Shown in pieces: positions 38,260 to 42,127 of a stretch of DNA of 64,000 bases; the stretch's first letter is position 1, and each line of letters opens with the position of its first letter. The stretch lies in NCBI RefSeq assembly GCF_016772315.1, contig NZ_CP053482.1, positions 2,971,501 to 3,035,500 on the forward strand, written 5' to 3'. The notes beneath the pieces are model-generated. The model was not told the origin of the DNA and searched no databases. It saw only the letters and a program-made list of their open reading frames with translations. The translations under genes and the position numbers were made by a program. Origin of the DNA: Thiothrix subterranea. GTDB taxonomy: Bacteria > Pseudomonadota > Gammaproteobacteria > Thiotrichales > Thiotrichaceae.

Positions 38260-38299
38260 GCTACCGCCCTACCTTGTCATTATCAGTATCAAATCAAAA
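38260..38299. repeat. Interspersed 40-bp repeat, copy c
   Basis: GCTACCGCCCTACCTTGTCA then TTATCAGTATCAAATCAAAA, one base different from copy a. It supplies the last ten codons and stop of the split Uma2 gene, so the repeat has replaced the normal C-terminus. Confidence 0.75.
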
Positions 38300-38484
38300 G
38301 TGAGAATATTTGCGTTTCGCAGCCGTACCAGTGGCACATCCTGTGATACCACCACATATTCCAACAGCGAAGGGATACTGGTGTAGTTATCGAATTTTTC
38401 TTTCAGGTCAACCCGCTCGGTGCCATCAGATAGCACCTCCACAATCAAGATGGGGTTTGAAGCAGCTACCACAAAACCCACCCA

Positions 38485-38517
38485 AACTTCTCCAATCTTT
38501 GTCATGTTGGAGAAGTT
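38485..38517. repeat. Left-end hairpin of the TnpB element
   Basis: AACTTCTCCAA (38485-38495) and TTGGAGAAGTT (38507-38517) form a perfect 11-bp stem with an 11-base loop, 27 bases inside the left end. TnpA of this family recognises such structures. Confidence 0.75.
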
Positions 38518-38608
38518 GTAAGGCACAGACTACCGTTCATCTGTCGATAGCAACATCAAAAACACCCACCCCTAGACACAAAATCTGCTGTATTGCATCC
38601 TATTCCTC

Positions 38609-39841
38609 ATGATTATCAGCCACAAAATCCGCCTAGACCCCAACAATAAACAAGCCACGTACTTGGCGAAAGCCGCAGGTACAGCGCGGTTTGCTTACAA
38701 CTGGGCGTTGGCGGAATGGCAAAGCCAATACGCGGCATGGAAAGACGACAACACCCAGCCCAAACCCAACCAAATGAGTTTGCGTCGCCAATTGAACGCC
38801 ATTAAACGCGAACAATTCCCGTGGATGCTCGACGTCACCAAAAACGCCCCACAAATGGCAATTATCCAACTGGGGCAAGCGTTCAACAACTTTTTTGCCG
38901 GACGTGCCAAGCACCCGCAGTTCAAAAAGAAAGGCAAGAGCCGTGACAGTTTCACCCTCACCAACGATCAATTTTCGCTTGATGCTTCCCGCATCCGCAT
39001 TCCCAACCTTGGGTTAGCACGGATGCGGGAAACGTTACGCTTTTTCGGCAAAATTCTTTCTGCCACGATTTCCCGCACCGCTGACCAGTGGTTCGCCAGC
39101 ATCACCGTGGATACGGATCAAAACCACCTCCCGCCTGCCGAAAACCAAGGCACGGTGGGGGTGGATTTGGGCGTATCCGCACTGGCAACGCTGTCAACGG
39201 GGGAAAAAGTGGTTGGTGCGAAGCCGCATAAAGTCTTGCTTTCACGCCTACAACGGCTCTCGCGCAGCTTGTCACGCAAAGTCAAGGGCAGTGCCAACCG
39301 CCACAAGGCAAAACAAAAACTGGCAAAACTTCACGCACGTATTGCCAATATCCGCCAAGACAGTTTGCACCAACTCACTACGGATTTAACCCGCCGTTTT
39401 TACACCATCGGCATTGAAGATTTGAATGTGTCGGGCATGGTGAAAAATCGCCGTTTATCCCGTGCTATCAGTGATATGGGGTTTTTCGAGTTTCGCCGTC
39501 AACTGGAATACAAGGCGGGAATGCGTGGAGCGGTGGTCGTGGTGGCTGATCGGTTTTTTGCCTCCAGCAAGACTTGTTCTGCCTCCGGCTGTGGGTACAA
39601 AGTGGACAAATTACCACTATCGGTACGCGAATGGACTTGCCCCGTTTGTGGCGCAGTTCATGACCGTGACGTAAATGCTGCCAAGAATTTGCAAGAGTAT
39701 GCTTCGGCTACGCTCAGCAACCACGCCGTGAGTTCCACGGTGTCTGCCTGTGGAGGGGAAGGCTCTGGTCTTGGGCGTAAGCCGAAGACGAAACCAGCCC
39801 CAATGAAGCAGGAATTTAACCGCAAACTTGACCTTGGTTAA
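38609..39841 (+). CDS. tnpB: TnpB RNA-guided nuclease
   Basis: 410 residues, normal for TnpB. The N-terminal helix-turn-helix/wedge part starts ISHKIRLDPNNKQATYLAKA. The RuvC residues are complete: D186 in TVGVDLGVSALA, E270 in FYTIGIEDLNVSG and D354 in VHDRDVNAAKNL. The zinc finger is SKTCSASGCGY ... EWTCPVCG. The enzyme is therefore probably active. TnpB cuts DNA under guidance of an RNA transcribed from the right end of its element, and so helps the element stay in place. No Shine-Dalgarno is obvious; the start ATGATTATC is chosen by homology to the family N-terminus. Confidence 0.95.
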   Translation: MIISHKIRLDPNNKQATYLAKAAGTARFAYNWALAEWQSQYAAWKDDNTQPKPNQMSLRRQLNAIKREQFPWMLDVTKNAPQMAIIQLGQAFNNFFAGRAKHPQFKKKGKSRDSFTLTNDQFSLDASRIRIPNLGLARMRETLRFFGKILSATISRTADQWFASITVDTDQNHLPPAENQGTVGVDLGVSALATLSTGEKVVGAKPHKVLLSRLQRLSRSLSRKVKGSANRHKAKQKLAKLHARIANIRQDSLHQLTTDLTRRFYTIGIEDLNVSGMVKNRRLSRAISDMGFFEFRRQLEYKAGMRGAVVVVADRFFASSKTCSASGCGYKVDKLPLSVREWTCPVCGAVHDRDVNAAKNLQEYASATLSNHAVSSTVSACGGEGSGLGRKPKTKPAPMKQEFNRKLDLG

Positions 39842-39867
39842 GTTTGTATAAGTTTAAAGGAACGGTT
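39700..39867 (+). ncRNA. Putative omega-RNA of the TnpB element
   Basis: In this family the guide RNA overlaps the 3' end of tnpB and runs through the right end, with the guide taken from the flank. Here the flank begins AGTGCGTGTATAAAGG at 39868. The 5' limit given is a guess from typical lengths. Confidence 0.35.
39818..39867. repeat. Right-end hairpin of the TnpB element
   Basis: Outer stem AACCG (39818-39822) with CGGTT (39863-39867), inner stem CAAACTT (39823-39829) with AAGTTTG (39840-39846). It lies over the tnpB stop and closes exactly at the deduced element end. Confidence 0.65.
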
Positions 39868-40476
39868 AGTGCGTGTATAAAGGTCATCTGGGTTCTCACC
39901 ACAAGCAGCCATGATGTCGGGGTAATAACCGAAGCGCTGCCATTGGTTGCGGATGACCAGTTTCATGTCAGATTGCCAGACACGGCAACTGTCTTTTAGC
40001 TGGGTTTCGATAAACGCACAAAAGGAGGTGGCAATAGTGTTGTGTGTTTCACTCGCTCCCGCCATTGCGTACACCAGTCCATCCACATATTCGCTACGGC
40101 TGTCAGCGTCGCGTTCACCCGCCAGATAATCCTCAAACGGGGTGAGGTCATATTTCAGTGCGTGTGCCATCGGTGTTTCCTTCAACTGGATGATGGAATG
40201 AGGTTAGCAAGCCCACCACTAAACCGCAAATTCAGAGGGGGAACCTTTAAAAACCCAGTGTATAGCAACGGTTAGCTTTGACCTGTCGGTATTTTATTAA
40301 AAAAACACCAACCCATCTCAATTTTTAGCACACCAAGCCACAATTAGGTTGTTTTTCCGCATTTTTGCGGTTTTTTCGGGGATTTCCCCGTCAAATGGGC
40401 ACAACTCCGCCTTCTTTGAGCGAACAGAGCCGCCGCAGGTTATACACGGTTGCCTTGATACGCCAGCACCAGACAC

Positions 40477-40526: not shown

Positions 40527-42127
40527 CAGCAATTCCCGCTATCCATCGGTAATCAGAGCTTCGCAGGCTTGTGAGGGCTTTGATTTTTACGGGCACAACC
40601 CCACCCTCTAAGCCCTGAAAGCCTGCCCGAATACCGCCTGACTTTTGCATAACCCAACACCCTGTTGGAAAACTCCAGCGTACCCTCAAGCCTGATTTTC
40701 ATCCGCTGCGAATGCCTTTAGGTGTCAGGTCGGTACGTTCGTAACCCCAAATGATGGCAGCATAGAAGGACTCCCAATCGCTAATCAGATGCTCACGGAA
40801 CATCCCGCGCATCTTCTCCCACAATGCAGTACGACTCTGTAAGCGGGCGCGTGCGGCTTGGAAGTACTGGCAGCAGGCTTCCTGTATCTGGTCGATCAGG
40901 AAGGCCAACATCATCAGGGTGGCGAACACGGTGGAGAGGTGCTGCTTGCCATGACCATAATTATGTTCGAGGTTGTAACCGAGGTTTTTAAGGGTGTTAA
41001 AGGTTTCGTTCTCCACCTTCCAGCGGGAACGGCCTGCGCGTACCACATCCGCCACGTTGTCGGCGGTGAGGGGGATGTCAGTCACGCAGTCATAGATAAA
41101 GGTTGTACCGTCGGGGCGTTCCTCCCAATAGTCGATGTAGTTGACCCGCACGTCTTGGTTGGCATGATTGAGCGGGATGTCGTTGGCATAACGGTAGCCA
41201 CACCGTAACTTTTTGCTTGTCGTACCTGCCAATTCTTGGGTACTGCCATTGGCTAACCCGTCCAATACGGTGTTCAGCAATAGGCTGCTACTACGGGCTT
41301 TGGCGGTAATGATAAAGCTGTAACCGTTTGATTTCAGAAGACGGATGTGCGGTGCATTGCAGGACAGGGCATCTTGCAGCAGGATCATCTCCATGCGCGG
41401 GAAGTCTTGGCGCAACTGGGGGATGAGCCGTTTAGAGGCATTGTGTTCGCAATCATTTTTCTTGCTGCCATCCTGCTTGGTGATGGCCTCTGGGAAAAAG
41501 GGTAATACGGTATTCTTGTCAGGGTGAACCAGCACTGCCGCCAGCATCTGGTGGTAATACGCCTCACGTCCGTCCTTGTGTGTCTTAATGCAACAATCCG
41601 GGCAAGAGATAGCCCCAGAGCTAAAAATACCTGTTCCATCAATACTGACTAAATACTTTCCTAGAAAACGGTAGCCTTCCAGTATGCCTTGCCGTTGCAG
41701 CTCCTGATGGATGGCGCGAAACACCGGGCGCAGACGCTGCGGTTTTACCCCGTCCAATACCGTGCGCATTTGGCTGTCACAGGGAGCATCGGGGATGCCA
41801 AACAGGGTTTTCAGGTTGTGCCGCCGCGCCTTGTCCCCGCGCTGTTTGTCAAACTGCAACAGTGAGCCGTCTTTCAACGAAAATAGGGCAAGCCCTGACA
41901 TCAACACGTCAACCAAGGGATAGTCGGGTTTGGTTTTACGGTGCTCAGTGACTTCGCTGAAACAGCCACGCACACGTTCCAGCAATCCGGGGGCTGAGAG
42001 AGTCTTGCGTAGCTTCAGGCTACCAACAGGAGGCAGGGCAGGTGGTTTTGCAGGCATTTCGTTGCACAGTGACTCGTTTTACAAGACCATGATTATACAG
42101 TCATTTTAAGATCGGCGGGAATTGCTG
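40527..42127 (-). mobile_element. Complete IS4-like insertion sequence (1601 bp)
   Basis: The terminal inverted repeats begin with CAGCAATTCCCGC (40527-40539) and its exact complement (42115-42127), with weaker similarity further in. Both ends are flanked by the 9-bp direct repeat TTTGCGCAT. One DDE transposase gene fills the interior. Perfect ends and target duplication indicate a recent, complete insertion. Confidence 0.88.
40699..42057 (-). CDS. IS4-like DDE transposase
   Basis: 452 residues. An N-terminal region SEVTEHRKTKPDYPLVDVLM is typical of ISAs1/IS4-like transposases. The DDE catalytic core is visible as SIDGTGIFSS (first Asp), LLQDALSCNAPHI (second Asp) and RWKVENETFNTLKNLGYN (Glu in the C1 region, a variant of YxxRW-type IS4 motifs). 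The frame is intact and the element ends are perfect, so it is probably active. The subgroup within IS4 cannot be fixed without a database. Confidence 0.88.
   Translation of the reverse strand: MPAKPPALPPVGSLKLRKTLSAPGLLERVRGCFSEVTEHRKTKPDYPLVDVLMSGLALFSLKDGSLLQFDKQRGDKARRHNLKTLFGIPDAPCDSQMRTVLDGVKPQRLRPVFRAIHQELQRQGILEGYRFLGKYLVSIDGTGIFSSGAISCPDCCIKTHKDGREAYYHQMLAAVLVHPDKNTVLPFFPEAITKQDGSKKNDCEHNASKRLIPQLRQDFPRMEMILLQDALSCNAPHIRLLKSNGYSFIITAKARSSSLLLNTVLDGLANGSTQELAGTTSKKLRCGYRYANDIPLNHANQDVRVNYIDYWEERPDGTTFIYDCVTDIPLTADNVADVVRAGRSRWKVENETFNTLKNLGYNLEHNYGHGKQHLSTVFATLMMLAFLIDQIQEACCQYFQAARARLQSRTALWEKMRGMFREHLISDWESFYAAIIWGYERTDLTPKGIRSG

What the first reader, a model, noticed from the sequence alone, without database searches (positions are those of the whole stretch)
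38269..40170. TnpB element inserted in a Uma2 gene can be removed on paper to restore the frame exactly
Deleting 38458-39867 rejoins DLYTRT to NPILIVEVLS, matching the Uma2 family, and shows both element ends. TnpB keeps all RuvC residues (D186, E270, D354) and the zinc finger. This gives a defined insertion site (TGGGGTT/AGTGCG), a candidate target-adjacent motif ending GGTT and a predicted guide beginning AGTGCGTGTATAAAGG. There is no tnpA, so the element moves in trans or is kept only by TnpB action.
Basis: partly seen in the sequence, partly recalled or inferred. Interest (0 to 1): 0.58.

Follow-up and report, generated by a model that had tools for sequence, protein, structure and literature searches.

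The report
TnpB satellite element interrupting Uma2 gene
A small mobile DNA element that carries only the RNA-guided DNA cutter TnpB sits inside a Uma2-type gene of a Thiothrix-like bacterium; it is an IS607-type element that probably borrows the transposase of a sister copy elsewhere in the genome, a new example of a known kind of element.

Summary
A 1410-bp tnpB-only element (38456-39865) splits a uma2 gene; a sister genome has the empty site with exactly the predicted junction (96% identity, no gaps). The interpretation needs correcting. It derives from IS607, not IS200/IS605: the genome has no Y1 transposase, but a sister copy about 1 Mb away carries an intact IS607-type serine recombinase. 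In 48 copies from eight Thiothrix genomes the left flank is RGGG in 42 of 42 scorable copies and the bases after the right-end GG vary. So the predicted TAM is RGGG, not GGTT, and the guide starts TTAGTGCG, two bases earlier than proposed. The right end bears CGG, which would spare the element itself. The guide-RNA scaffold lies largely inside the tnpB reading frame: synonymous change falls there, 20 of 38 pairs show two-sided changes, and there is a sub-threshold RAGATH-18 match. TnpB-only copies keep the helper's phased end repeats, so movement in trans is likely but unproven. uma2 also carries a separate 158-bp 3' deletion, so excision would not restore a full gene.

The parts
38452..38455 (+). 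Left target flank GGGG = predicted TAM (RGGG); its last GG is the IS607-type recombination core
   Evidence: 42 of 42 scorable left ends among 48 copies have RGGG (23 GGGG, 19 AGGG); only GG was used as anchor; the empty site L096 keeps it
38456..38608 (+). Left end of the element (153 bp) without tnpA; AAAC-type boxes at +19 and +29 (38474, 38484), candidate TnpA-binding repeats
   Evidence: same 153-bp spacing in 36 of 42 scorable copies; boxes at the same offsets in the tnpA-bearing copy L036
38609..39841 (+). tnpB, 410 aa: HTH, RuvC (D186, E270, D354), zinc finger (C323, C328, C344, C347)
   Evidence: Pfam OrfB_IS605, Cas12f1-like_TNB, HTH_OrfB_IS605; residue positions; PDB 8bf8 TnpB at 6.9e-64
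39725..39865 (+). Predicted guide-RNA scaffold (reRNA/omega-RNA), mostly inside the tnpB reading frame
   Evidence: six helices, 38 pairs, 20 with two-sided changes in 30 sequences; synonymous change drops from about 0.56 to 0.13-0.21
39747..39814 (+). RAGATH-18-like core of the scaffold
   Evidence: Rfam RF03064, 27 bits, E 0.022, whole model 1-71, below the gathering score 44.9
39841..39865 (+). Right terminus with two AGTTT boxes (39841, 39851), inverted relative to the left-end boxes, ending AACGG; CGG instead of GGG precedes the guide
   Evidence: AACGG seen in the 45 right ends printed (it then served as anchor); boxes
39866..39885 (+). Predicted guide (first 20 nt of flank, TTAGTGCGTGTATAAAGGTC), also the target in the empty site
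   Evidence: directly follows the right end; the 29 positions shown of the empty allele L096 are identical
39866..40170 (-). uma2 N-terminal part
   Evidence: Pfam Uma2 profile 1-87
38269..38455 (-). uma2 C-terminal part; homology to intact uma2 stops near 38320-38322, where 158 bp are missing relative to L096; the rest is an aberrant tail

Best explanation
The feature is a TnpB-only satellite of an IS607-family insertion sequence, inserted at a GG within RGGG in a uma2 gene. Inferred mechanism: (1) the serine recombinase TnpA encoded by the sister copy at G000:C1:2005842-2006459 binds the phased AAAC-type boxes at both ends and moves the element by recombination between GG dinucleotides, leaving no duplication. 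(2) The 3' part of the tnpB transcript folds into a scaffold of about 140 nt whose 3' extension, starting TTAGTGCG, is the guide. (3) When the element leaves, RGGG becomes joined to the guide-matching sequence and TnpB cuts this empty site; repair from a chromosome copy that still holds the element restores the insertion. The element does not cut itself because its right end reads ACGG, not RGGG, before the guide. Shown here by sequence: ends, empty site, helper gene, scaffold covariation, flank motif. Inferred from published TnpB work: nuclease action, RNA production, TAM recognition, movement in trans.
For: Eight full or nearly full copies plus a fragment in the genome; no PF01797 Y1 transposase; one IS607-type tnpA with MerR and Resolvase domains overlapping its tnpB. 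Of six sites tested, four have gap-free empty alleles in relatives. RGGG at 42 of 42 scorable left ends. Box offsets agree in helper and satellites, 11 left and 6 right ends examined. Covariation score 0.410 against 0.178 shuffled; 143 cells with two-sided changes against 43; pairs with such changes 20 against 14.8; slid controls 28-46% paired against 96%. In the own genome the only match to 16 bases of TAM plus guide with fewer than 2 mismatches is the element's own right end, which has CGG. ISXfa1 TnpB, an IS607 nuclease, has TAM GGG and a scaffold that includes the first flanking nucleotide (PMC10711439, passages); the published IS607 TAM GAGGG also ends in AGGG (PMC11061315, passages).
Against: No expression, cutting or transposition data. 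RGGG could be a target preference of TnpA and not a TAM; the data do not separate them. One empty allele (L098) reads ACGG where the occupied site reads AGGG, and one distant relative (L224) reads CGGG. G002 and G013 hold TnpB-only copies but no IS607-type tnpA match (G002 is a draft in 60 contigs), so a resident helper is not universal. PMC9956272 argues that TnpB-only IS1341 elements may have evolved independently of IS605 and IS607 (passages). The tnpB tree shows no clean split between helpers and satellites.
Confidence: 0.88

Rival explanations
1. The element is an IS200/IS605-derived element that moves by a Y1 transposase in trans, with GGTT as target motif.
For: Among solved structures TnpB is closest to an AI-designed nuclease and to the TnpBs 8bf8 and 8h1j (8exa, same sequence as 8bf8, is called ISDra2 in PMC11061315), ahead of 8iaz; TnpB-only elements are common (PMC9956272, passages).
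Against: No Y1 transposase in the genome, while the same search rings in 5 of 14 control genomes; ends carry GG at both borders and match those of a serine-recombinase element in the same genome; the base after the right-end GG varies.
Confidence: 0.03
2. The element is an immobile, decaying remnant kept only by TnpB self-maintenance; the helper is irrelevant.
For: This copy lacks tnpA; G002 and G013 have copies without a tnpA match; some copies are broken (L013, L127, L019).
Against: Polymorphic insertions with empty alleles in sister species; 42 different left flanks among 42 scored copies; phased end boxes kept; many left ends in G009 are 96-99% identical to one query.
Confidence: 0.08
3. 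Part of the motif, the purine in RGGG, is a target preference of TnpA, and TnpB recognises a looser motif such as GGG. (This concerns one step only and is otherwise compatible with the best explanation.)
For: The motif holds in nearly all relatives, with and without tnpA; ISXfa1 TnpB depletes GGG (PMC10711439, passages).
Against: IS607 transposases are described as having minimal specificity for target DNA (PMC4058570, abstract in the listing).
Confidence: 0.35

Closest known systems
ISXfa1 (IS607 family, Xylella) TnpB and reRNA (PMC10711439, passages)
   Same: IS607 element with GG core; TAM GGG; reRNA of about 150 nt that extends past the right end, with the first flanking nucleotide inside the scaffold
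   Different: this copy lacks tnpA; predicted TAM one base longer (RGGG). I did not compare the sequences, did not see the RuvC signature of ISXfa1, and found no statement on overlap of its reRNA with the gene
RAGATH-18-guided IS607 TnpBs such as ISFba1 (PMC11061315, passages)
   Same: RuvC TnpB of IS607 elements, G-rich 5' TAM, scaffold with a RAGATH-18-like core between 5' and 3' flanking parts
   Different: published TAMs are AGGAG (18 of 22 strains) or GAGGG (4 of 22) and the reRNA is described as totally independent of the coding sequence; here the RAGATH-18-like core lies inside tnpB, and the Rfam match is below the gathering score
IS1341-type TnpB-only elements (PMC9956272, passages)
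   Same: tnpB alone between IS ends
   Different: here an IS607 relation is visible because a tnpA-bearing copy with the same ends sits in the same genome; that paper calls it unclear whether IS1341 elements are autonomous or decayed IS605/IS607 copies, and leans to independent evolution
ISDra2 TnpB (PDB 8bf8, 8ex9, 8exa)
   Same: aligns over residues 7-383 including the RuvC triad
   Different: IS200/IS605 element with a Y1 transposase (recalled) and AT-rich TAM (PMC11061315, passages)

Membership tests
IS607 family | serine recombinase TnpA with N-terminal MerR-type HTH in the element | tested here: not met
   absent from this copy; met in the sister copy L036 with shared ends: PF00239 1e-21, PF00376 6.5e-15. 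Hence filed as an IS607-derived satellite, not as an IS607 element
IS607 family | GG at both borders, no target duplication beyond the dinucleotide | tested here: met
IS607 family | helically phased short motifs in left and right ends | tested here: met
   boxes at LE +19 and +29 (this copy; +39/40 as well in several others) and RE -25, -15; IS1535 pattern seen in PMC6188088 passages. TnpA binding itself not tested
IS607 family | double-stranded circular intermediate | not testable with these tools
   needs PCR on cells
TnpB RNA-guided nuclease | RuvC D-E-D triad and zinc finger | tested here: met
   D186, E270, D354; C323, C328, C344, C347; first cysteine pair is CX4C where 8bf8 has CX2C
TnpB RNA-guided nuclease | structured guide RNA at the right end | tested here: met
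   by comparative sequence only:
TnpB RNA-guided nuclease | guided DNA cleavage | not testable with these tools
   needs biochemistry
RAGATH-18 RNA (RF03064) | score at or above the curated gathering score | tested here: not met
   27 bits against 44.9; 5 of 17 other loci match at 27.7-29.8 bits, 12 of 17 not at all at E up to 1
IS200/IS605 family | Y1 transposase sharing the ends | tested here: not met
   none in the genome
IS1341-type (TnpB-only) element | tnpB between IS ends and no tnpA-derived sequence | tested here: inconclusive
   no tnpA match at protein level; the nucleotide criterion of PMC9956272 (no match over 20 bp) was not tested

The most novel reading that the evidence does not exclude
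A TnpB-only satellite lineage has outgrown its transposase-bearing parent within a genus: one or two intact helper tnpA genes per genome serve up to about 19 full-length satellites (G009), the satellites keep tnpB rather than shrinking to bare ends, and the guide-RNA scaffold is encoded inside tnpB so that gene and RNA cannot be separated. In one relative (T. fructosivorans, G004) a group II intron has entered exactly this scaffold-coding site in three copies, a counterpart to the group I introns of IStrons.
Probability: 0.4. Interest if true: 0.5.

Novelty: new member of a known kind. Interest (0 to 1): 0.36.

Why it matters
It gives a natural set for testing why TnpB-only elements persist: many satellites, an identifiable helper, empty alleles in sister species, and a precise TAM and guide prediction for each copy. 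PMC9956272 (passages) calls it unclear whether TnpB-only elements are autonomous or decayed IS605/IS607 copies; in this lineage an IS607 relation is visible. If the RAGATH-18-like reading holds, it adds a gene-overlapping layout to guide RNAs that PMC11061315 (passages) describes as separate from the gene, in Proteobacteria, which are not among the seven phyla named there.

Tried and rejected
Rejected: GGTT as TAM (bases after the right-end GG vary); IS200/IS605 origin; self-targeting of another uma2 copy in the own genome (42 matches with up to 3 mismatches against 50 for the reversed control; best non-self matches have 2 mismatches). Looked for copies with both ends and no tnpB: none noticed in the list, but for G009 only 40 of 51 candidates were scored there, and some right-end matches have no partner (for example G009 at 552457 and contig ends of G005), not followed up. 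Two G004 loci, L246 and L247, have a left end with tnpA and no tnpB. Two of the six tested sites (L015, L036) matched relatives on one side only and gave no empty allele; a second, diverged homologue of the L018 site (L115) aligned with gaps. No structure prediction was run. The tnpB tree did not show a single clean origin of the TnpB-only form.

Rows dropped before counts: left ends not scored in 6 of 48 copies (L013, L126, L133, L134, L135, L146); right ends of 3 of 48 (L123, L125, L126) left out because a group II intron puts them beyond the fetched stretch (still counted three chance matches there). AACGG was the search anchor, so its constancy there is by construction; the evidence for it is the printout. 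Among distant relatives two right ends differ: L206 reads GGACGG and L213 AACAG. Synonymous test: 14 of 23 coding sequences used; 4 dropped for stops or frameshifts, 5 for another tail type. Scaffold alignment: 71 loci found, 3 false matches dropped, 46 distinct, thinned to 30 below 97% identity.

Full report
OBSERVATION. The window holds an intact 410-aa tnpB (38609-39841) inside a uma2 gene on the other strand. Both uma2 pieces match Pfam Uma2. RuvC residues D186, E270 and D354 and four zinc-finger cysteines are present.

EMPTY SITE. The window lies in G000:C1. Joined flanks of six insertion sites were searched in the 16 genomes held for the genus. Four of six sites have gap-free empty alleles: uma2 in G013 (L096, 96.2% over 286 nt), the L012 site in G013 (97%), the L014 site in five genomes (91.7-99.7%), and the L018 site in G013 (97%). 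Eight further uma2 homologues (74-79% identity, L104-L111) also lack an insertion there. So the excision product predicted on paper exists in nature. Against a simple story, the L018 empty allele reads ACGG where the occupied allele reads AGGG.

A SECOND LESION. Compared with L096, the window's uma2 lacks 158 bp at about 38322; the joined ORF is 163 aa with an unrelated tail, against 193 aa in G013. Loss of the element would therefore not restore a complete protein.

WHICH FAMILY. The own genome has eight full or nearly full copies and a fragment of this tnpB, plus two distant ones at 34-35% identity, and no Y1 transposase. One copy (L036) carries, directly upstream and overlapping by 4 bp, a 206-aa protein with MerR and serine-resolvase domains, the IS607 type of TnpA. 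Its ends equal those of the TnpB-only copies: left GGG|TTTGAA, right GTTTAAAGGAACGG. A second right-end type, TTTGAAATAACGG, occurs in L016 and in the G009 copies. AAAC-type boxes recur at about +19 and +29 (and +39/40 in several) at the left end in the 11 copies examined, and AGTTT-type boxes at -25 and -15 at the right end in the 6 copies examined, helpers and satellites alike (four AAACT in the 51-nt L036 left end, reached in 0.00015 of 20,000 mononucleotide shuffles). IS1535 shows the same layout of phased motifs bound by TnpA (PMC6188088, passages). I therefore file the element as a TnpB-only satellite derived from IS607, not as a full IS607 element.

TAM AND GUIDE. Anchoring only on GG before the element's first bases, 42 of 42 scorable left ends have RGGG (23 GGGG, 19 AGGG), all with different flanks. 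The 45 right ends printed end in AACGG; the next base is T 29, C 11, A 5 and never G. Nineteen further recognisable left ends (17 from relatives, and L133 and L134) read by eye RGGG in 18; L224 reads CGGG. Thus TT is not part of the element, the predicted TAM is RGGG and the guide begins TTAGTGCGTG. The element's own copy of the guide-matching sequence is preceded by ACGG, so it lacks the TAM; in the own genome no other place matches 16 bases of TAM plus guide with fewer than two mismatches. ISXfa1, another IS607 TnpB, depletes GGG, and its scaffold includes the first flanking nucleotide (PMC10711439, passages). Published TAMs of RAGATH-18-guided IS607 TnpBs are AGGAG and GAGGG; the second ends in AGGG (PMC11061315, passages). 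Whether the purine at -4 is read by TnpB or by TnpA is open.

GUIDE RNA. Synonymous differences among 14 relatives run near 0.56 just upstream and fall to 0.13-0.21 over the last 40 or so codons of tnpB; stretches at columns 101-120 and 191-210 dip to about 0.26, so the fall is strong but not unique in kind. An alignment of 30 right ends folds into six helices with 38 pairs, 20 of which show two-sided changes. With that structure 96.1% of cells pair, against 83.3% in shuffles and 28-46% when slid; covariation score 0.410 against 0.178; pairs with two-sided changes 20 against 14.8; none of 500 shuffles reaches the observed values. The structure was derived from these sequences, which favours it over the slid controls, and related rows inflate such scores. 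Helices 1-4 lie wholly inside the reading frame. Rfam gives RAGATH-18 over its whole length at 27 bits (gathering 44.9, E 0.022) and the same weak match in 5 of 17 other loci (E 0.15-0.54). RAGATH-18 RNAs are guide RNAs of IS607 TnpBs (PMC11061315, passages); that paper names seven phyla, Proteobacteria not among them, and states that the RNA is independent of the coding sequence, while here it overlaps it.

HELPER AND SATELLITES. Of the 48 copies, 40 have no tnpA match; 8 have all or part of it. Intact tnpA (205-206 aa matched, no stops, 83% identity or more) was found once in G000, G003, G004 and G008 and twice in G006 and G009; G002 and G013 have satellites and no such gene; G005, a fragmented assembly, has tnpA pieces at contig ends and elsewhere. 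G009 has 19 full-length TnpB-only copies beside one fetched tnpA-bearing copy. The left end to tnpB distance is 153 bp in 36 of 42 scored copies. The midpoint-rooted tnpB tree places the helpers L036 (G000), L121 (G004, tnpA with an internal deletion) and L132 (G003) together, L154 (G009) and L131 (G006) among satellites, and L133-L135 (G008, G006) with the satellite L128. This suggests exchange between copies; TnpB-driven copying could do this, but I did not test it.

LITERATURE. The held library is open PMC papers only. A search with Thiothrix, TnpB and IS607 found 33 papers with two of the terms; in the 20 listed, Thiothrix occurs in none. Papers seen as passages: PMC10711439, PMC11061315, PMC9956272, PMC6188088; PMC4058570 and PMC4227781 only as listing abstracts.

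VERDICT. Real, well defined, and a new member of a known kind. The useful additions are the corrected family, TAM and guide, the empty allele, the helper, and the scaffold inside the gene.

Noticed in passing
L251:2253-4629, and the same place in L123 and L126 (genome G004): Three tnpB copies carry a group II intron (Rfam group-II-D1D4-7 at 7.3e-26 in all three; Intron_gpII and RT, maturase and HNH Pfam domains checked in L251 only) at the same point of the guide-RNA-coding segment, with different left flanks and divergent tnpB (89-96% to the query). Splicing would give back the scaffold; retrohoming into a conserved scaffold site is my inference. Searches listed 2 and 3 papers, none about this by title or abstract; I opened none for it.
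   Followed up: partly
window 38298-38322: Junction of a 158-bp deletion that removed the 3' end of uma2, separate from the element.
   Followed up: yes
L098 (G013): Empty counterpart of the L018 site reads ACGG instead of AGGG: either a point change after divergence or a TAM-less, cut-proof allele.
   Followed up: no
L246 (G004:C6:431300-436500): Intact IS607-type tnpA with a left end but no tnpB match in the fetched stretch and no right end listed nearby: an immobile helper candidate.
   Followed up: partly
window 40699-42057: 452-aa ORF on the minus strand next to uma2 that looks like a transposase; judged by eye, not searched.
   Followed up: no
   Followed up: no
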